From Haloarcula marismortui ATCC 43049 (GTDB lineage Archaea > Halobacteriota > Halobacteria > Halobacteriales > Haloarculaceae), in assembly GCF_000011085.1 (NCBI RefSeq), contig NC_006390.1:1-33452 (forward strand): DNA of 33,452 nucleotides, in the 5' to 3' direction. Positions 8,422-27,342 of the stretch are shown here, in pieces (position 1 is the first letter of the stretch; each line of letters starts with the position of its first letter). Position numbers and translations under genes: made by a program. Under the pieces are notes generated by a model, which saw nothing but the letters and a program-made list of their open reading frames with translations, was not told the origin of the DNA and ran no database searches.

Positions 8422-8434
8422 CGTTCTGTGAAGT
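8422..8434. repeat. 13-bp repeat, second copy, at the parA start
   Basis: This is the second copy of CGTTCTGTGAAGT (see 7520-7532), located just upstream of the preferred parA start codon. That position would suit autoregulatory binding by the ParA/partner complex. Confidence 0.35.
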
Positions 8435-8541
8435 CTGTGAGTTCAAATAACTACGTCAGACATAGGACAGGGACCATGGAATCACGAGCTTCGACGTCTG
8501 GGTTCCAGAAAGCCGACGCACGCACCGTCCCTGAGTGTGAA

Positions 8542-8551
8542 GTATTTTTAC
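8542..8551 (+). promoter_or_regulatory. TATA-like element for the pilin gene
   Basis: A TATTTTTACT stretch lies about 30 bases before the pilin ATG at 8575. This is the spacing expected for a leaderless haloarchaeal transcript starting at or near the start codon. Confidence 0.4.
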
Positions 8552-8574
8552 TAAACGAGGGGTTGTATATTGTA

Positions 8575-9090
8575 ATGCACCTGAAACAGTTGTTGTGCAC
8601 TGATGACGACGCAGTTTCGCCAGTCATCGGGGTTGTGCTCATGGTCGCAGTTACCGTGATCCTCGCGGCTGTCATTGCAACGTTTGTATTAGGAGTAGGC
8701 GATAGCGTCAATGACACTGCGCCACAGGCAAGCTTCAATTTCAATTATGAGCAGAATGGCGGGGGCTCAGATGAGCTTGCAATCACCCACAATGCGGGGG
8801 ACGCCATTGCGGGCGAGAATCTCAATGTCACCTCTACCGGTGCTGCAACTGAAGATGATGACAGCGCAAGTATTGGTACCGATGTGTTCACTGGCACAAT
8901 AGACGCAGGAACAACAGCGACTATCAACAATACGACCTTCAAAAGAGACTCTGACAACAAGGTCCTTAGCAGCGCTGGTGGACCAGACTCACGGCTCAAT
9001 CTCTCTGCCGCGACTGTCAGGGTCGTTTACATTGATACCAGTAGTGATAGTTCCGCAACGCTTGGACGCTGGGAAGGTCCCGATGTCTGA
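8575..9090 (+). CDS. archaeal type IV pilin (PilA-like)
   Basis: This 171-residue pilin precursor has a short charged leader, then DDDAVSPVIGVVLMVAVTVI and a further hydrophobic run to about residue 42. This is the haloarchaeal PilA H-domain, and the prepilin peptidase PibD would cut just before VSPVIG (between A13 and V14). The remainder is an acidic, Thr/Asn-rich exported domain with several N-x-S/T sites that could be glycosylated. Such pilins build adhesion pili and are assembled by PilB/PilC, neither of which is present here. The frame is open to 8428, but the leader fixes ATG 8575. Confidence 0.9.
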   Translation: MHLKQLLCTDDDAVSPVIGVVLMVAVTVILAAVIATFVLGVGDSVNDTAPQASFNFNYEQNGGGSDELAITHNAGDAIAGENLNVTSTGAATEDDDSASIGTDVFTGTIDAGTTATINNTTFKRDSDNKVLSSAGGPDSRLNLSAATVRVVYIDTSSDSSATLGRWEGPDV

Positions 9091-10773: not shown

Positions 10774-11718
10774 CTACGCCTGAGAGACAGTTCCACCGGC
10801 GTCGACAGACCCTTTTATCTGTTCCTTCTTACCGAGAGAAACGTCTCCATCGGCGTTGACAGACCCTTTTATTTGTGCCTTCTTACCGAGTGAAACGTTT
10901 CCATCGGCGTTGACAGACCCTTTTATTTGTGCCTTCTTACCGAGTGAAACGTTTCCATCGGCGTTGACAGACCCTTTTATTTGTGCCTTCTTACCGAGTG
11001 AAACGTTTCCATCGGCGTTGACAGACCCTTTTATTTGTGCCTTCTTACCGAGTGAAACGTTTCCACCAGCCTCCACAGACTGCTTGACTTTCGCTTTTGA
11101 ATTAAGAACCACGCAGCCGACGGCATTAATATGGTTGTGAACTATTACGTTTGACAACAGCTCCACAGTCTTGCCTTCGTCAATGGTCTCTTCAGTATCT
11201 TCTTGAATTACCAGACGTGGGCCGGCACAAGGATTAGTTACCTCAACTGGTGTCGACCGTGACAGCGATACGCTAAAGTCTCCGGTCGCTGTGTCAACGG
11301 CCTCTAAAGTGAACTCAATCTGGTCGGGTTGTTTTGCTGGGTTCACATCGACAGTGAACTTGGCTTCTCTTTCGGAGGGAATCGGCTGCTGTTGGGTGTC
11401 GGTAGGAATCGTAACGCCGTCGATATCTTCGGTAAGACTAATATCAACACGCAACCGCTCTGTTGTGTTGTTCGTTACTGTGACGAGTGGGCTCCCAATA
11501 GTTGCCTCAACCGGCTTCTCGACATCAACTCCAACGAGCGCAGACGTATCATCAGCGGTGTCGATATTGGTCTCTCGTTTAGCAGCCACATTCGAGAAGG
11601 CCCCCGTAACATGGATACTCGCTCCGCTGAGGCCACCGCCCACAAGCGACAGGAGTAATCTTCGTCGACTCAGGAGGCTACTTGACTCGCCTCGACTCCG
11701 GTTTCGGTGTTTAGACAT
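10774..11718 (-). CDS. exported TasA-like protein with bactofilin-like beta-helix repeats
   Basis: This is a 314-residue protein with a twin-arginine signal (SRRRLLLS at residues 17-24, hydrophobic to about 36). Then comes TGAFSNVAAKRETNIDTADD, which matches the start of the DUF1102-type proteins at 13082 and 13858. After this TasA-like beta domain (to about residue 165) there is a beta-helix part. It has two degenerate rungs (about 184-219) and then five 18-residue rungs (220-309) of the pattern [N/D]VSLGKK-x-QIKGSV-x-A-x-G. Four of these are identical, and the fifth has three changes. The rungs resemble bactofilin polymer-forming repeats. I infer a surface or fibre protein. The identical repeats point to recent expansion. 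This fusion is unusual to my knowledge. Confidence 0.75.
   Translation of the reverse strand: MSKHRNRSRGESSSLLSRRRLLLSLVGGGLSGASIHVTGAFSNVAAKRETNIDTADDTSALVGVDVEKPVEATIGSPLVTVTNNTTERLRVDISLTEDIDGVTIPTDTQQQPIPSEREAKFTVDVNPAKQPDQIEFTLEAVDTATGDFSVSLSRSTPVEVTNPCAGPRLVIQEDTEETIDEGKTVELLSNVIVHNHINAVGCVVLNSKAKVKQSVEAGGNVSLGKKAQIKGSVNADGNVSLGKKAQIKGSVNADGNVSLGKKAQIKGSVNADGNVSLGKKAQIKGSVNADGDVSLGKKEQIKGSVDAGGTVSQA
10792..11061 (-). repeat. five tandem 54-bp repeats
   Basis: The 54-base unit recurs with exact period; the marker AGACCC occurs at 10807, 10861, 10915, 10969 and 11023. The inner copies are nearly identical even at third codon positions, so the array has been expanded or homogenised recently. 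It encodes the 18-residue beta-helix rungs of the exported protein. Confidence 0.95.
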
Positions 11719-11884
11719 GGAAGTGCGCTAGTGTCCGGTACAGCAATAATTTCAATCCGGAGGAATATAACATCTCTTGTCTTCTGGAAGGTGTATAATA
11801 GTTTTCTGACATAAACAGTATTCAAGAGAATACTGGTTGAGTAGTTCAGGTCGAGCAATGCTCTGCTGCAGTAACGTAGCAGTG

Positions 11885-13003
11885 CTATCTAATGGTTGGT
11901 ACATCGAGATCCGGGACCAGTCGATACCCAGTCACTGTACCGACGGCGGTAGAAACCGTGAGCGCCGTGACTAACTGCGAAACCGGGCCGAGACCAGCGC
12001 TTGAAGCCGCTGATACGGCAAGCACTGTGAACACGAGCGCGGTAAGGCCGATTATCGCTTCCCGGACGGCGACACGGCGGAATCGGCGACGGCGGTCGCT
12101 TGGGTGCGTCTGGAGCACCGGGAGGACACTATGATATCGCGTTTGCACAAGGTAGTTCGTCACTACAGCGAGCAAGCCAGCGACGGTCGTCCATAGTCCC
12201 CAGCCAATACCAAATATCGGATCAAACTTGAGCGAAAATCCGCTCGGTTCTGCCGACTGCTGGTCTCCGGGTGACGGCGACACAGGTTCGGCCCCACCGC
12301 CAGCCACGGCTTCCGCCTCGTCCTGGGTGTCAACAGGCGTTACGGCCGGTTCATCGGTCGATATATCGACCTCAGTACCACCGCCACCGCCCCCGCTGGC
12401 AGGCGTTTCAGTCGGGTCATCCGCCGGCGTCACAGTCCCGGGGCTGACACCGCCCCCGCCGCCCACACTGCCGCCACCGCCTCCACCACCGCCGCCTCCG
12501 CCAGTACTTGGCTCGGCATCTGGAATTTCCATTGTGTAAGTCACTGTCTCCGAAAGAGACGCCGGGCTGTCAGCCGTTGTTGTCACAGCAAACCCGAGCG
12601 TTGCTTGTTCGTCTGGATCGAGGGTAAGTGTATTATTCGCTTCATCAACCGACTCGCGTGCGCCTGTGTCTGTGCTTCTGTAGATATCCAGCCACACACT
12701 ATCGTGTTCAATCCGTATCGTCGCTGGTTCGTCACTACCGGTAACGCCCCCAAAACCGACGACAAACACATTGTCGAATACGGCCTTTGTACCGGAAATG
12801 ACATCAACAGAGAGACGAAGCTCGCCGTTGCTGTCGAAGGATGCATAGCGATCACCATTGGGCGTGTCAGCCGGAGCCAGTGCAACCCCAGTGTCTTCCG
12901 CTGGAGCGAGATCATCAACTGGTCCTGAAAGTGGGACTGCGGCCGTAGAAATGACTGTTCCGCAGACGATGAGCGCGAACCCAAGAGCAACGTACCATTT
13001 CAT
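11885..13003 (-). CDS. membrane-anchored DUF1102-type protein
   Basis: This 372-residue protein starts with a hydrophobic signal or anchor (MKWYVALGFALIVCGTVIST). An outer beta domain follows at about residues 35-160 (NGELRLSVDV, PATIRIEHDSVWLDIY, ETVTYTMEI). Next is a Gly-rich linker with an 11-Gly run and a Thr/Pro/Asp-rich stretch (about 166-250), and then three predicted membrane helices in the C-terminal third (about 265-290, 315-342, 347-366). The basic loop SDRRRRFRRVAVRE between the helices suggests a cytoplasmic side. It follows the TasA-like gene at 13082 in the same direction, with 78 bases between. It could anchor or nucleate that fibre. Function is inferred. Confidence 0.72.
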   Translation of the reverse strand: MKWYVALGFALIVCGTVISTAAVPLSGPVDDLAPAEDTGVALAPADTPNGDRYASFDSNGELRLSVDVISGTKAVFDNVFVVGFGGVTGSDEPATIRIEHDSVWLDIYRSTDTGARESVDEANNTLTLDPDEQATLGFAVTTTADSPASLSETVTYTMEIPDAEPSTGGGGGGGGGGGSVGGGGGVSPGTVTPADDPTETPASGGGGGGTEVDISTDEPAVTPVDTQDEAEAVAGGGAEPVSPSPGDQQSAEPSGFSLKFDPIFGIGWGLWTTVAGLLAVVTNYLVQTRYHSVLPVLQTHPSDRRRRFRRVAVREAIIGLTALVFTVLAVSAASSAGLGPVSQLVTALTVSTAVGTVTGYRLVPDLDVPTIR

Positions 13004-13050
13004 ATTATAGCTGAGAGAGACGACTTACGCAGACAATGCCAATGCCGGTC

Positions 13051-13074
13051 TCCACCTGCTACTCATCAGGTGGA
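13051..13074 (-). terminator. hairpin between two exported-protein genes
   Basis: TCCACCTG and CAGGTGGA form a perfect 8-bp stem with an 8-base loop, just after the stop codon of the 13082 gene and before the next gene. It may reduce read-through or protect the upstream transcript, so that the small subunit is made in excess over the membrane protein. Confidence 0.45.
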
Positions 13075-13081
13075 CTGCCGA

Positions 13082-13684
13082 CTATGAACTATTGTAGTCC
13101 TCTTGGCGTGCTGCGAAAACGATTGAGTCTATATCACCGATTTCTGCGCCAGTGTGGTTCTGGAGATCGACGACAATTGTAAGCGTAACAGAAGCACCAT
13201 CGGCTAAGTTAACAGCGTTGTTGCCTTCGCTACCGACGATTGAACTCCCGCTTTGGCCTGTTTTAATATCTAGTGCACTTCCGACAAGGTCTTTTCCCGA
13301 TGTGTCTCCATCGTACTCGGTCTTACTGGAATCTACTGAAAGACCGACATTCTTGTTGCTGTCATTAGTGACTTTAAGTGCATTCTTGAATGTGGTCGTC
13401 GCCTTTTCATTGAGATCGGTCTGTTTGAGTTTGATTACGGACGTGTCTGCTCCGTCTGGAGAGTCCGTAACAATAATGCCGTTCTTATCTTCAGGGGTAC
13501 CACCATCAGCATCACTCAGCTTATTCGCTTCAAAACTCAACAGCGCTGTTGAATCATCAGAGGTCTGAACATTAACTGACCGGGTCGCCTCGACCGAGGA
13601 GAACGCACCGGAGCCAAACACGCCACCAACAGTCGTACTGAGCGACCCAAGTCCGAGCAGGACATTTCGTCGAGTTACTCGCAT
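13082..13684 (-). CDS. TasA/camelysin-like DUF1102-type exported protein
   Basis: This 200-residue protein opens with TRRNVLLGLGSLS, a likely Tat signal, then SGAFSSVEATRSVNVQTSDD. That is the conserved start of haloarchaeal DUF1102 proteins, which appear to share the fold of TasA, camelysin and the archaeal bundling-pilus subunit AbpA. The mature part is beta-rich with conserved segments TTTFKNALKVTNDSNKNVGL and SVTLTIVVDLQNHTG. In TasA-like fibres the N-terminal strand is donated to the neighbouring subunit. It shares a divergent, mirror-symmetric promoter region with the paralogue at 13858. Filament formation is inferred by homology, and no sipW-like signal peptidase gene is present in the window. 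Confidence 0.8.
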   Translation of the reverse strand: MRVTRRNVLLGLGSLSTTVGGVFGSGAFSSVEATRSVNVQTSDDSTALLSFEANKLSDADGGTPEDKNGIIVTDSPDGADTSVIKLKQTDLNEKATTTFKNALKVTNDSNKNVGLSVDSSKTEYDGDTSGKDLVGSALDIKTGQSGSSIVGSEGNNAVNLADGASVTLTIVVDLQNHTGAEIGDIDSIVFAARQEDYNSS

Positions 13685-13714
13685 TTGTTATGCGATACAA
13701 TGCTAGCCCACCAG

Positions 13715-13801
13715 TTACTATTGGCGTGCTTGAGCGGGGTTAAGGGTGCCCATTAATTCGTCAAGCACGGCTTTATCCCGGCTCAAGCAACCCAATAGTA
13801 A
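13715..13801. promoter_or_regulatory. mirror-image divergent promoter region
   Basis: The left arm, starting TTACTATTGG at 13715, and the reverse complement of the right arm ending at 13801 match at 25 of 29 positions. Three TCAAGCA-type boxes occur (one in the left arm on the minus strand, then at 13761 and 13783). A TTTATCC stretch at about 13772 is a plausible TATA element for the plus-strand gene. The symmetry means the two divergent TasA-like genes probably share one regulator and are expressed together. Confidence 0.6.
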
Positions 13802-13857
13802 GTCCCCGGACCCTGTTACAAGTGGTACGGCACGCATAACGTGCTGACTAACGAACT

Positions 13858-14577
13858 ATGAATCGCAGAAACGTACTTACGGGACTTGGTGGATTGGCAA
13901 TTAGTGGTGGTGCACTCTTTGGCACAGGCGCATTCACGAGTGTCAGTGCAACACGCTCAGTTGAAGTGAACGTCTTCGGCGACAGTGGCGGGACAACGGG
14001 TCTCGTTGACGATGCAAACAGCGATGAGGAAGAGAATATCGCAGAGACAATCACTGGAGGTAGTGGTGAGGATGAAACTGGTGGCGCTGTTGATGTGCTT
14101 ATCAATACAGCGAACAAGTCCATCTCTGTCGCAGGACCGGACGGAGGGGATGTCAGCGCAACTAATCTGTTCCCGTCTGCCGCTAGCATTTACGGCGATG
14201 CTATCGATACCGAGTACGTGAGCCTTGTTGCCAACGACGTGACAATCGTTTTCGGCGACGAGCAAGGGCTCCCACCGAGTAGCTCAGTTGGGTTCAGCAA
14301 CCTGTTTGCGTTCGTGCCAAACACAAATGGTACTGAGTTCGACGTTCGCTTCGAGAGCGATACGGCAGCTAATGCAAGCCTCCTCACAGAGATAGGAGGA
14401 ACAGGTCTTAACAGTGATGATGACACGAGTAATGATCCAAGCTTCACCATTAGTGGTGTGTCCAAACCTAATGGTCAATCAGCCATAGAGTCGGGAGATA
14501 TCACAGAACAGCCTGCTAGCGTCGACACCACAACGTCAGATAACACTAGTCAGACGCTCGATATAACTATCGAATAA
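13858..14577 (+). CDS. TasA/camelysin-like DUF1102-type exported protein
   Basis: This 239-residue paralogue of the 13082 product has a Tat-like signal NRRNVLTGLGGLAI (residues 2-15) and the conserved join GTGAFTSVSATRSVEVNVFGD. The mature domain contains TEYVSLVANDVTIVFGDEQG, VGFSNLFAFVPNTNGTEFD and VRFESD. A Thr/Ser-rich tail follows (TTTSDNTSQTLDITIE). It is longer than its partner by inserted acidic loops. It is transcribed away from 13082 through a symmetric promoter region, and converges on the 14675 gene. Likely role: a subunit or minor component of the same surface fibre. This is inference. Confidence 0.8.
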   Translation: MNRRNVLTGLGGLAISGGALFGTGAFTSVSATRSVEVNVFGDSGGTTGLVDDANSDEEENIAETITGGSGEDETGGAVDVLINTANKSISVAGPDGGDVSATNLFPSAASIYGDAIDTEYVSLVANDVTIVFGDEQGLPPSSSVGFSNLFAFVPNTNGTEFDVRFESDTAANASLLTEIGGTGLNSDDDTSNDPSFTISGVSKPNGQSAIESGDITEQPASVDTTTSDNTSQTLDITIE

Positions 14578-23336: not shown

Positions 23337-25775
23337 ATGAGCCAGCACAACGCCCGAGAGACACTTTCTTGGCTCAAAGACCGAGGTCACTACAGTGGTC
23401 AGATTGTACACGAACGGACTGTCAACGGGCAAGAGGCGCAAACAGATTCGCTTTCGATACTGCCGTCAGTCAAGATTGCACTGTCTCAGTTTGGAATCGA
23501 AGACCTCTACGAGCACCAGATTAGTTCAATTGAGGCGACCCGAGCGGGTGAGAACACGGTCGTTGCTACTCCAACAGCATCAGGGAAATCGCTGACATAT
23601 GCTGTTCCCGCATTAGAGCGGGCGGTTGACCACAGTGGAAAAGCGCTTTATATCGCACCGATGAGGGCGCTCATAAACGATCAGGCGGGGACGCTTCAAG
23701 CCATGGCGGATGCCCTTGGATTCGGTGAACAAGTTGACGTCGGCGTGAAAACAGGCCAGTCATCGAAGGCTGAAACGCGGAGTATCAAGCAGCGGCAACC
23801 AGATGTCCTCTTGGCGACAATCGATCAACTCCATCTCTCATTTCTCCCGTACGCACACTTAACCGATCACTGGCGATGGCTGTTCCAACAATTAGAGACT
23901 GTGATCATCGACGAAGTGCATACGTATAGAGGGTACTTTGGCAGCCACGCAGCGCTGATCTTCCGTCGGCTGAATCGATTGTTAGACCACTACGGGAAGG
24001 ACCCTCAGTATATTTGCTGTTCAGCTACGATCGGAAATCCCGTTGATCACGCCGCCGCCGTCACAGGGCGACCTACGGACTCATTTACGCTCGTCGACAA
24101 CGATACGAGTGCCTCCGGTGATAAGCAGTGGGTGTTCTGGAATCCACCACAGAAAGACCGTGAAGACGACTCTACTGCTGATGTAGATGAAGAGACAGCG
24201 TCCACTCAACAGGGGGCAGGTCAAGCCGGAGAAACAACGGCAACACAAGATGATAGCGATGTCGGCGGTGAACGACTCTCTCAGCACGTCGAGTCAGTCC
24301 GGATTTTTGCAGATCTTGTGACGCGGGGGTATCAGACACTCGTTTTCACCGCTGCTCGACAGGGGACAGAGCAATACGTCGACTGGGCCGACAGTAAACT
24401 CCGGTCGCGTGGTGAACACGACATTGCTGACTCCGTTCACGCATATCACGCTGCACTCGAGTCAGAGCGACGGCGAGAGTTAGAAGCCGGGCTAAAAAGC
24501 GGCGACATCCGAGGGCTGTGGTCCACGCGAGCACTTGAGTTAGGAATCGATATCGGATCGCTTGACGCAGTGATTCTTGATGGATATCCAGGGACCGGTA
24601 TGAGCACATTCCAGCGTGCCGGACGTGCTGGCCGCGGCGACGATTCCTGTCTTGTCATCATGGTCGGGAGCGACAATCCGCTCGATCAATATCTGCTCAA
24701 AGAACCAGAACAACTCTTTGAGGGCGGAGCAGAGCAGGCAGCAGTAAATCCCAGCAACCGGTCAGCGCTTCCAGAGCATCTTGTGTGCGCCGCAGACGAC
24801 CACTACCTGTCCCCCGATGATGAGCAATACTTCGGTGAAGCACTTCCAGAAATGGTGGACCAGTTGACAGCTGAAGGGAGACTTAAACGAACAAACGAAG
24901 AGCAGGTACGGTGGGAAGCAGCGAACAACGACATTCAAATCCAGACAGATATTCGAAATATCGACGAAGAAGAAATCAAGCTCGTCGACAGAAATCGGGG
25001 AGAAATACTCGGCAGTCTTGAACGAGATGCCGCCCTTCGAGATGCTCATCCGAATGCTATCTATATGTACGACAAACAGTCGTACAAGGTTGTCGAGTTG
25101 GATCTAGAAGAGCGAACAGCATATCTCGAAAGCGTTGAAACGAGCGAGTATACACGCGCACTCCGCGAAAAGGAGGTAACAGTTAACGACACGCTTGATA
25201 CTCGGACACTGGAATTCGATGGTGAAGATATGAAGGCAACGCTAGGCTCGCTCACTGTTCGCAATCAAATCACTGGGTATCTGCGCTACTCCAGCCCGCG
25301 AGATGAATCGCCATCCGAGCACGAGTTCGAGACACCGCTACCCCCATCAGAAATAGCCACGACAGGGCTGTTCTTCGAGGCCCCACAGAAGATCGAACGG
25401 AAGATGCTCAAGCAGGTGGACAGTCCGGAGCAGTACCTCAGCGGTCTTCATGCCATTGAACACGCACTCATATCGCTGTATCCGAGCGAAGTCCTGTGTG
25501 ACCGTGGAGACATCGGCGGGCTATCGACGGTCTCTCACCCGCAGACCGTCGGCGGGACTGTGTTCGTCCACGACGGCTATCCGGGCGGGGCCGGGTACTG
25601 TCGCGCTGCATTTGAACAGCTTGACTCGCTGTTGAGCCAGACAGCAGACCTCCTCGCTTCATGTAGTTGTTCGGACGGCTGTCCGTCTTGTATCCATAGT
25701 CCTCACTGTGGGAACGGGAATCGGAGCCTCAGCAAAGACCACGCTAACAGAGTTCTAAGAGATTTGATTGACTAG
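23337..25775 (+). CDS. DEAD/DEAH-type helicase with DUF1998 C-terminus (MrfA-like)
   Basis: This 812-residue superfamily 2 helicase has motif I PTASGKS (residues 79-85), DEVH (192-195), SATIGNP (229-235) and motif VI QRAGRAGR (426-433). The C-terminal domain ends with the Cys cluster CSCSDGCPSCIHSPHCG (776-792), the DUF1998 zinc-binding site. This matches YprA/MrfA and Hrq1-type 3'-5' helicases, implicated in repair of mitomycin C damage. Other DUF1998 proteins belong to defence systems such as DISARM (drmB). An acidic insert at about 275-310 is a haloarchaeal feature. The start is the first ATG after an A/T-rich promoter-like region. No methylase or other DISARM partner is next to it. Confidence 0.92.
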   Translation: MSQHNARETLSWLKDRGHYSGQIVHERTVNGQEAQTDSLSILPSVKIALSQFGIEDLYEHQISSIEATRAGENTVVATPTASGKSLTYAVPALERAVDHSGKALYIAPMRALINDQAGTLQAMADALGFGEQVDVGVKTGQSSKAETRSIKQRQPDVLLATIDQLHLSFLPYAHLTDHWRWLFQQLETVIIDEVHTYRGYFGSHAALIFRRLNRLLDHYGKDPQYICCSATIGNPVDHAAAVTGRPTDSFTLVDNDTSASGDKQWVFWNPPQKDREDDSTADVDEETASTQQGAGQAGETTATQDDSDVGGERLSQHVESVRIFADLVTRGYQTLVFTAARQGTEQYVDWADSKLRSRGEHDIADSVHAYHAALESERRRELEAGLKSGDIRGLWSTRALELGIDIGSLDAVILDGYPGTGMSTFQRAGRAGRGDDSCLVIMVGSDNPLDQYLLKEPEQLFEGGAEQAAVNPSNRSALPEHLVCAADDHYLSPDDEQYFGEALPEMVDQLTAEGRLKRTNEEQVRWEAANNDIQIQTDIRNIDEEEIKLVDRNRGEILGSLERDAALRDAHPNAIYMYDKQSYKVVELDLEERTAYLESVETSEYTRALREKEVTVNDTLDTRTLEFDGEDMKATLGSLTVRNQITGYLRYSSPRDESPSEHEFETPLPPSEIATTGLFFEAPQKIERKMLKQVDSPEQYLSGLHAIEHALISLYPSEVLCDRGDIGGLSTVSHPQTVGGTVFVHDGYPGGAGYCRAAFEQLDSLLSQTADLLASCSCSDGCPSCIHSPHCGNGNRSLSKDHANRVLRDLID

Positions 25776-26196: not shown

Positions 26197-26361
26197 AAAG
26201 TCGTACTCGCGACATCCTACAAGAACCCACTCCAGCCATTTTCAAAAGTAGTACTCACAGTTCTTATCAGTGGGAATTTCTCGGTAATTGGTATTTTGAA
26301 TTCGTGCAAGAATGGCCGGCATACTGGGTTTCCCCCACGTGCCCCGGCGGGTTACATATCC

Positions 26362-27342
26362 ATGACCGACACCGATCACTCACGTGCTGCAGAGACGAAA
26401 GCGATGACGTGCCCTTGTGGGAAAGCCGCACCATGTGCAGGCTCAAGGCCAAGTAATGGCGCAGGGACCGAGAATGCCAACACTGGGCCGACCCTCCCCG
26501 ACACAACTAGTGAAACGCGGGAGGAGTTCGGGGGCATCAAAGCCCAGATCCCAGAGACGGATGCCCCTGATGAAATACTCCAACGAGCGAACAGCAGGGA
26601 ATGGGACAATGCGTTCGCACTCTGTAGTGGGGGAAAGGACTCCACTGCGGCACTTCACCATACGTATCGCAATGCTGAGTTTCCTTTAGACGGGATTATT
26701 TTTATTGATACCAATATCGGGTTACATGAATCCAAAGAGTACGTTCAAAACCTCGGCGAGAAGTTTGACCTTCCCGTCCACATCGCAGACACACGCAACA
26801 AAGCAGACAGATACCGAGAGCGGATTGAAAAGTACGGATTTGCCGGCCCGACGCGCCAGTCTCACCGGTTCGAGTATATCTGCAATAAAGACAAGCCACT
26901 TCAAAAGTTTCTCACCGGGTTCGAGGGGCAATCGTTGCTCATCAGCGGCGCCACGCGGCAGGAGTCAGACGCTCGGTACGAAGCCGTCAGTGCTGACGGG
27001 ATCGAGCAGGACGGGACTCGAACGTTCGTCTCACCCCTAGCCCGATGGACACAGTCCGACGTCGACGACTACCTCAACGAACACGGTGTCGAGGTATCAG
27101 AGGTAACCGAATTGCTGGAATCATCGGGAGACTGCCTCTGTGGTGCGTACGCCGACCGATATCTTGAGTTGTCCCAGTTGCGAGAGCACTACCGGTACCT
27201 ACACACGTATATCCAGTCGCTGGAAGCCCGAGTGATTGACGCCGCCAGAAATGATGAACTTCTGAAAGACCAATATAGCAGTTGTTCCGGATTTCGGGGT
27301 AGTTTGTTGCACACCGATCACACCGGGTACCCGGTGCGCTGA
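26362..27342 (+). CDS. PAPS-reductase-family PP-loop protein
   Basis: This 326-residue protein has the PP-loop SGGKDST (residues 89-95), then IIFIDTNIGLHES, DTRNKADRYRERIEKYGF, LLISGATRQESDARYEAV, SPLARWTQSDVDDYL, and a late SSGDCLCGAYADRY. This is the phosphoadenosine phosphosulfate reductase-like fold, seen also in haloviruses and as DndC/SspD in DNA phosphorothioation. The N-terminus (MTCPCGKAAPC) may hold a second Cys site. No dnd partner is visible. Its last 20 or so residues (from about 306) lie in a sequence shared with the repeat at 21.5 kb. The native C-terminus may therefore have been replaced. The reaction cannot be assigned. Confidence 0.82.
   Translation: MTDTDHSRAAETKAMTCPCGKAAPCAGSRPSNGAGTENANTGPTLPDTTSETREEFGGIKAQIPETDAPDEILQRANSREWDNAFALCSGGKDSTAALHHTYRNAEFPLDGIIFIDTNIGLHESKEYVQNLGEKFDLPVHIADTRNKADRYRERIEKYGFAGPTRQSHRFEYICNKDKPLQKFLTGFEGQSLLISGATRQESDARYEAVSADGIEQDGTRTFVSPLARWTQSDVDDYLNEHGVEVSEVTELLESSGDCLCGAYADRYLELSQLREHYRYLHTYIQSLEARVIDAARNDELLKDQYSSCSGFRGSLLHTDHTGYPVR

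What the first reader, a model, noticed from the sequence alone, without database searches (positions are those of the whole stretch)
10774..14577. Four-gene exported locus with TasA/DUF1102-like subunits: candidate archaeal fibre or matrix system
Three genes (10774, 13082, 13858) share the join 'GAF-x-x-V-x-A-x-R' after Tat-like signals, and the fourth (11885) has a similar beta domain plus a Gly-rich linker and membrane helices. DUF1102 proteins appear related to TasA/camelysin and the archaeal AbpA fibre subunit. The set would give two subunits, a membrane anchor or nucleator, and a fusion to a polymer-forming beta-helix. This combination, on what looks like a mobile replicon, is not one I know as described.
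Basis: partly seen in the sequence, partly recalled or inferred. Interest (0 to 1): 0.75.

Follow-up and report, generated by a model that had tools for sequence, protein, structure and literature searches.

The report
Plasmid Tat-fimbriae genes, swapped TafC tail
A small plasmid of the Dead Sea archaeon Haloarcula marismortui carries a second, cut-down set of genes for an already named kind of cell-surface fibre (Tat-fimbriae), in which one component ends in an unusual lysine-rich beta-helix; this suggests that the fibre's working end can be exchanged like a tool head.

Summary
In detail: four exported-protein genes lie at 10774-14577, and three share GAFxxVxAxR after a twin-arginine signal. 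The claim that the set is undescribed is wrong. Curated NCBIfam models above cut-off make 13858 TafA, 13082 TafE and 11885 TafF, subunits of the haloarchaeal Tat-fimbriae ("tafi"). The window is a whole plasmid of H. marismortui ATCC 43049, whose chromosome holds a complete taf locus, including the signal peptidase, DUF5305 and DUF7344 genes that the plasmid lacks. The 10774 protein has a TafC-like N-domain, but its tail is a predicted beta-helix.

Across haloarchaea the TafC slot keeps one N-domain, while the tail is LamG, ricin-B-like, FG-GAP-like, beta-helix or other types. The plasmid tail is lysine-rich (net +10 over 112 residues) where relatives' tails are acidic.

Best explanation: an alternative fimbrial subunit cassette that borrows the chromosomal processing machinery, with a basic beta-helix as adhesive end. 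The organism's plasmid-encoded archaellin FlaA2 is a published precedent for such borrowing. Export, polymerisation and adhesion are inferred, not shown. No link to TasA or AbpA was found at sequence level, and the TafA fold prediction failed. New variant of a known kind; moderate interest.

The parts
13858..14577 (+). TafA: likely major fimbrial subunit, Tat signal, GAFTSVSATR
   Evidence: NCBIfam NF052520 214.5 bits, cut-off 190; first 33 aa 97% identical to chromosomal TafA, the rest 33%
13685..13857 (.). Divergent spacer between tafE and tafA (173 bp), the same arrangement as in chromosomal taf loci
   Evidence: sequence; continuous 77.7% DNA identity with the chromosome from inside TafF to the start of tafA
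13082..13684 (-). TafE: fimbrial adapter-type subunit, Tat signal, GAFSSVEATR
   Evidence: NCBIfam NF052522 191.6 bits, cut-off 155; sister to chromosomal TafE in the tree, support 100/99
11885..13003 (-). TafF: N-terminal hydrophobic segment, beta domain, Gly-rich linker, C-terminal hydrophobic segments; likely membrane anchor
   Evidence: NCBIfam NF052523 559.7 bits, cut-off 420; hydropathy
10774..11718 (-). TafC-like protein with swapped tail: Tat signal, TafC-type N-domain, basic beta-helix
   Evidence: TafC model aligned to residues 19-163 only, 38.4 bits against cut-off 410; Bactofilin PF04519 35.9 bits, cut-off 27.9
11224..11580 (-). N-domain (residues 47-165) shared by TafC-type proteins
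   Evidence: AlphaFold mostly strands but low confidence
10777..11220 (-). Beta-helix tail (residues 167-314), 18-residue turns, Lys-rich
   Evidence: AlphaFold pLDDT about 80-95 in blocks from residue 171 on; residues 203-314 net charge +10
10791..11065 (-). 54-bp tandem array, 5.1 copies, 96% matching, coding for the 18-aa turns

Best explanation
The four genes are a plasmid-borne, reduced taf (Tat-fimbriae) cassette. TafA is the main fibre subunit, TafE an adapter-type subunit and TafF the membrane-anchored base protein. The 10774 protein stands in for TafC: its Tat signal and N-domain join the fibre, and its tail, a Lys-rich beta-helix, is the exposed working end that binds acidic partners such as S-layer glycans, acidic exopolysaccharide or DNA. 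The plasmid has no processing genes. The SipW-like signal peptidase, the DUF5305 protein and the DUF7344 regulator of the chromosomal taf locus would act in trans, so the plasmid gives the cell an alternative version of the same fibre. Shown by computation: family membership of TafA/E/F, layout, absence of the processing genes on the plasmid and their presence on the chromosome, the exchanged tail, its charge and its predicted beta-helix. Inferred: export by Tat, polymerisation, use of the chromosomal genes, tip position and ligand.
For: TafA, TafE and TafF pass curated cut-offs. Chromosomal contig C8 holds a full locus: TafF-TafE divergent from TafA-DUF7344-TafC-DUF5305-signal peptidase. The same layout or close variants recur in H. 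vallismortis, sebkhae, argentinensis and amylolytica and in Halovenus rubra. In G115 a beta-helix TafC (43% identical to the window protein) sits in a locus with signal peptidase, DUF5305, DUF7344, TafE-like and a weak TafF-like gene, so this tail belongs to such loci. The TafC slot has a constant N-domain and a block-swapped tail: tails are 44-81% identical within the LamG class, 36-44% within the malectin-like class and 42-53% within the beta-helix class, but about 18-31% between classes, where N-domains are 21-47%. Pfam finds LamG, RicinB_lectin_2 and Bactofilin tails above cut-off. The plasmid tail is net +10 while the G115 and G280 tails are -32 and -27. Precedent in the same organism: plasmid pNG100 supplies archaellin FlaA2, the main subunit of wild-type archaella, while the archaellum accessory genes lie on chromosome I (PMC6528647). 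A solved 'Pilin' chain, 9p0a_C, matches the TafE family profile at E=1.2e-33 over residues 1-186.
Against: The 10774 protein fails the TafC cut-off by far (38.4 against 410 bits), but so do the chromosomal TafC and the Halovenus-type TafC. It is separated from tafF by 166 bp and could have its own promoter. TafC-N-like genes also occur without other taf genes nearby (6 of 29 loci; also Natrinema plasmid L048 and H. marismortui contig C9). The G115, G280 and G331 beta-helix proteins have Sec-like, not Tat, signals. In G280 and G331 the gene is about 70 kb from the nearest tafE on the same contig. The plasmid tail lacks the C-terminal cap of its relatives, so it may be degenerate. No expression data were found for these genes.
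Confidence: 0.6

Rival explanations
1. The beta-helix tail is a polymerising module, as in bactofilins: tails stack end to end and cross-link or brace fibres into a matrix, rather than binding a foreign ligand.
For: Bactofilin is the best Pfam match; the plasmid tail lacks the C-terminal cap seen in relatives, leaving an open helix end; repeat number varies between homologues.
Against: Other TafC tails in the same slot are lectin-type folds (LamG, ricin-B), which points to binding; charge repulsion between Lys-rich helices, though salt would screen it; no test of oligomers was run.
Confidence: 0.2
2. The plasmid cassette is a decaying or silent copy, or a reservoir of alleles for recombination with the chromosomal locus, and makes no fibre of its own.
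For: No processing genes on the plasmid; uncapped tail; TafA has a conserved signal but a mature part of another type, a sign of past exchange.
Against: All four frames are intact; TafE and TafF are 69-73% identical to the chromosomal copies over their mature parts; FlaA2 shows that a plasmid subunit without its machinery can be used.
Confidence: 0.15
3. The 10774 gene is an independent surface protein that lies next to tafFEA by chance; only TafA/E/F are a unit.
For: Orphan TafC-N-like genes exist; the NCBIfam TafC cut-off is not met; 166 bp gap.
Against: 21 of 29 loci with relatives of its N-domain hold two or more other Taf-type families; same strand and next to tafF; shared Tat signal and GAFxxVxAxR; a close relative in a taf-like locus in G115.
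Confidence: 0.15
4. A new TasA/AbpA-type donor-strand fibre system, as first proposed.
For: Small exported beta-rich subunits with a SipW-like peptidase in the full (chromosomal) locus; TasA-like fibres are known in archaea (PMC9674648).
Against: A named system already covers it; the TafE profile finds no TasA or AbpA chain at E<=5; DUF1102 below cut-off; the TafA model is unusable.
Confidence: 0.1

Closest known systems
Tat-fimbriae (tafi) of haloarchaea (TafA, TafC, TafE, TafF; Galeva et al. 2025, iScience 28:111793, cited in PMC12687288)
   Same: TafA, TafE and TafF above curated cut-offs; Tat signals; divergent tafFE/tafA layout
   Different: No signal peptidase, DUF5305 or DUF7344 gene; TafC replaced by a TafC-N/beta-helix protein; on a 33-kb plasmid beside a complete chromosomal copy. 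The primary paper was not readable here.
Chromosomal taf locus of H. marismortui (G000:C8, locus L010)
   Same: TafE and TafF mature parts 69% and 73% identical; same spacer
   Different: TafA mature part only 33% identical; TafC tail of another type; processing genes present
Plasmid archaellin FlaA2 of H. marismortui (pNG100; PMC6528647)
   Same: Plasmid supplies a filament subunit while assembly genes are chromosomal
   Different: Archaellum (type IV pilus family), not Tat-fimbriae; another plasmid (the published flaA2 primer maps to contig C1, not the window)
Bactofilins (PF04519)
   Same: Beta-helix repeat tail, above Pfam cut-off
   Different: Exported fusion with N-terminal Tat signal and extra domain; strongly basic; no evidence that it polymerises
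TasA (B. subtilis) and archaeal bundling pili AbpA
   Same: Exported beta-rich subunits; SipW-like signal peptidase in the complete locus
   Different: No sequence match found; fold untested

Membership tests
Tat-fimbriae (Taf) | TafA, TafE and TafF above NCBIfam equivalog cut-offs | tested here: met
   214.5/190, 191.6/155, 559.7/420 bits
Tat-fimbriae (Taf) | TafC above the equivalog cut-off | tested here: not met
   38.4 against 410 bits, N-domain only; the model matches LamG-type TafC over its full length
Tat-fimbriae (Taf) | Twin-arginine signal with GAFxxVxAxR processing box | tested here: met
   three motif hits against 0.005 expected; RR motifs read directly
Tat-fimbriae (Taf) | Divergent tafFE / tafA layout | tested here: met
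Tat-fimbriae (Taf) | Signal peptidase, DUF5305 and DUF7344 genes in the locus | tested here: not met
   absent from the window in HMM scans, present on the chromosome
Tat-fimbriae (Taf) | Tat-dependent thin filaments on cells | not testable with these tools
   needs microscopy and a deletion strain
TasA / AbpA fibres | Sequence similarity to TasA or AbpA chains | tested here: not met
   profile of 21 TafE against PDB: only 9p0a is significant
TasA / AbpA fibres | Jelly-roll fold with donor-strand contact | tested here: inconclusive
   TafA model pLDDT 38; the structure 9p0a could not be compared here
DUF1102 | Pfam gathering score | tested here: not met
   TafF 15.4 against 22.2 bits; the other three no hit
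Bactofilin | PF04519 domain above cut-off | tested here: met
   35.9 against 27.9 bits
Bactofilin | Cytoplasmic polymer-forming protein without signal sequence | tested here: not met
   N-terminal RRR + hydrophobic signal in the sequence; polymer formation not tested

The most novel reading that the evidence does not exclude
Tat-fimbriae are modular: TafC is a tip adhesin whose binding domain is exchanged as a block between strains and between plasmid and chromosome. Here a plasmid supplies a whole alternative subunit set with a basic beta-helix head, so that a cell can switch what its fibres stick to by gaining or losing a 33-kb plasmid.
Probability: 0.3. Interest if true: 0.65.

Novelty: new variant of a known kind. 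Interest (0 to 1): 0.42.

Why it matters
If right, it makes TafC the likely adhesive end of a little-studied archaeal fibre and shows that its head is swappable, which gives direct hypotheses for what haloarchaea bind. It also adds a second filament, after the archaellum, for which H. marismortui may draw alternative subunits from a plasmid while the machinery stays on the chromosome. A strongly basic extracellular beta-helix in an organism with acidic proteins is unusual and testable.

Tried and rejected
DUF1102 as the family label: below cut-off, TafF only. DUF1102 in the whole genome: no match, but the control search rang nowhere either, so uninformative. TasA/AbpA by sequence: no match. 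TafA fold: AlphaFold failed with 6 sequences (pLDDT 38), so no fold search was run on it. Foldseek of the 10774 model: no match at E<=0.001; weak hits to ASH/PapD-like and fimbrial Ig folds are not used as evidence. TafF beta domain as homologue of TafE by hhalign: probability 8.9%, not supported. Relatives on viral contigs: none. A lost C-terminal cap through a recent frameshift: no cap sequence found downstream in any frame. The window as pNG100: rejected, since the published flaA2 primer is absent from the window and lies on contig C1; with a RepH-type gene and no annotated orc/cdc6 it fits pNG200 (inferred). Literature: the primary tafi paper is not held, so what it says about TafC is unknown to me.

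Full report
What is there. The four genes exist as described. GAF..V.A.R occurs three times in the six-frame translation, in exactly the three genes named; shuffled windows give 0.005. The motif is best read as the end of the signal peptide plus the start of the mature subunit, with a type I signal peptidase site (V-x-A) in it; that reading is inference.

What it is. NCBIfam release 20 has curated models for Tat-fimbriae. 13858-14577 is TafA (214.5 bits, cut-off 190), 13082-13684 TafE (191.6/155) and 11885-13003 TafF (559.7/420). The 10774 protein matches TafC only over its N-domain (38.4 bits, cut-off 410). Its tail hits Bactofilin (35.9/27.9). AlphaFold gives a confident beta-helix for the tail and a low-confidence beta-rich N-domain. 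Tat-fimbriae were described in haloarchaea in 2025; I could read only a citing paper, which says that the Tat system exports components of thin surface filaments with TafA as core component (PMC12687288). The system is therefore not undescribed.

Where it lies. The window is a whole replicon (contig C2, 33452 bases), 100% identical at the locus to plasmid pHMA34 of H. marismortui ATCC 43049. It is probably pNG200: it has a RepH-type gene and no annotated orc/cdc6 gene, and a published flaA2 primer for pNG100 lies on another contig. RefSeq starts for the TafC-like protein (V44) and TafE (V22) cut off the signals (from coordinates), which helps to explain why the genes read as plain hypothetical proteins.

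The complete system. Contig C8 (3.13 Mb) carries TafF-TafE divergent from TafA-DUF7344-TafC-DUF5305-signal peptidase, with a second DUF5305 gene beside TafF. The signal peptidase passes the archaeal model (66.4/51.85) and weakly matches SipW (35 bits, cut-off 190). The same order or close variants occur in H. vallismortis, sebkhae, argentinensis and amylolytica, Halovenus rubra and unnamed relatives. TafF matches 70 of 146 genomes of the family at E<=0.001 and passes the cut-off in 13. Haloferax plasmids carry TafF relatives too, so plasmid location is not unique.

Mosaic history. Plasmid and chromosomal TafE are sisters (100/99), and the TafF copies are 73% identical. But TafA is 97% identical in the first 33 residues and 33% after them. 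In the tree plasmid TafA groups with vallismortis/sebkhae/argentinensis/G070 types (99/97), while chromosomal TafA groups with G075 (92/94), in a set with Halovenus types (90/87, open). This suggests exchange of the mature subunit; long branches make the chromosomal placement less sure.

TafC is modular. In fetched loci the TafC slot has a common N-domain. Tails include LamG (86.5 and 81.6 bits, cut-off 27.6), RicinB_lectin_2 (61.8/25.6), FG-GAP (weak), Bactofilin-type beta-helix (60.8-70.2 bits in G115, G280, G331) and a malectin-like type recognised only by eye. Tails are conserved within a class (LamG 44-81%, malectin-like 36-44%, beta-helix 42-53%) and near background between classes (about 18-31%), where the N-domain is 21-47% identical. 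The NCBIfam TafC model covers only the LamG type at full length among those tested. Of 29 loci found through the 10774 N-domain, 23 hold at least one and 21 at least two other Taf-type families. These loci were picked by score, and no random-locus background was measured.

The odd tail. It has 18-residue turns coded by a 54-bp x 5.1 array at 96%, so the array has probably expanded recently. It is basic: 16.1% Lys/Arg, 7.1% Asp/Glu, net +10 over residues 203-314, against -32 and -27 in G115 and G280. It lacks the C-terminal cap that those share. A ladder of lysines, one set per turn, would suit binding of polyanions; this is inference.

How it most likely works. Tat exports TafA, TafE and the TafC-like protein folded; a chromosomal signal peptidase trims them; TafF anchors the fibre in the membrane; TafA polymerises; the TafC-like protein is displayed with the beta-helix outward. 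Only family membership, layout and sequence features are shown. The idea that a plasmid subunit uses chromosomal machinery has a precedent in this organism: FlaA2 from pNG100 is the main archaellin of wild-type cells, and a strain lacking pNG100 builds archaella of chromosomal FlaB alone (PMC6528647).

TasA and AbpA. The TafE family profile hits one solved chain, 9p0a_C 'Pilin', at 1.2e-33 over its residues 1-186, and no TasA or AbpA chain at E<=5. Part of the 9p0a score comes from the signal region. The TafA model is unusable. So the TasA relation is neither shown nor excluded at the level of fold.

Verdict. Real, coherent and mostly known. New here: a reduced plasmid cassette beside a complete chromosomal one, a basic beta-helix TafC, and evidence that TafC tails are swapped as blocks. 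I could not check whether the primary paper already notes the last point.

Noticed in passing
window 23337-25775 (+) and 26296-27342 (+): DEAD helicase with MrfA Zn-binding domain, and a PAPS-reductase-like protein with weak SspD/BrxP matches: possible DNA-modification or defence cargo on the plasmid.
   Followed up: partly
window 8428-9090 (+): Archaeal type IV pilin (Pilin_N 91 bits) about 1.7 kb from the taf cluster on the same plasmid.
   Followed up: no
window 11718-11589 and 13684-13621 (-): RefSeq start codons remove the Tat signals of the TafC-like protein (43 aa) and TafE (21 aa).
   Followed up: yes
L011 5319-6338 (-) (G000:C9, about 13.3-14.3 kb): Orphan TafC-N-like exported protein on the 288-kb replicon, next to a transposase-like gene; no other taf gene seen nearby.
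   Followed up: partly
L048 6896-7762 (+) (Natrinema thermotolerans plasmid): Orphan Tat-signal protein with TafC-type N-domain and bactofilin-like tail, next to a glycosyltransferase and a DUF2334 protein.
   Followed up: partly
PDB 9p0a chain C: Solved 'Pilin' chain with a Tat-like signal and GAFSSVEADR, clearly of the TafE/TafA family; no paper found.
   Followed up: partly
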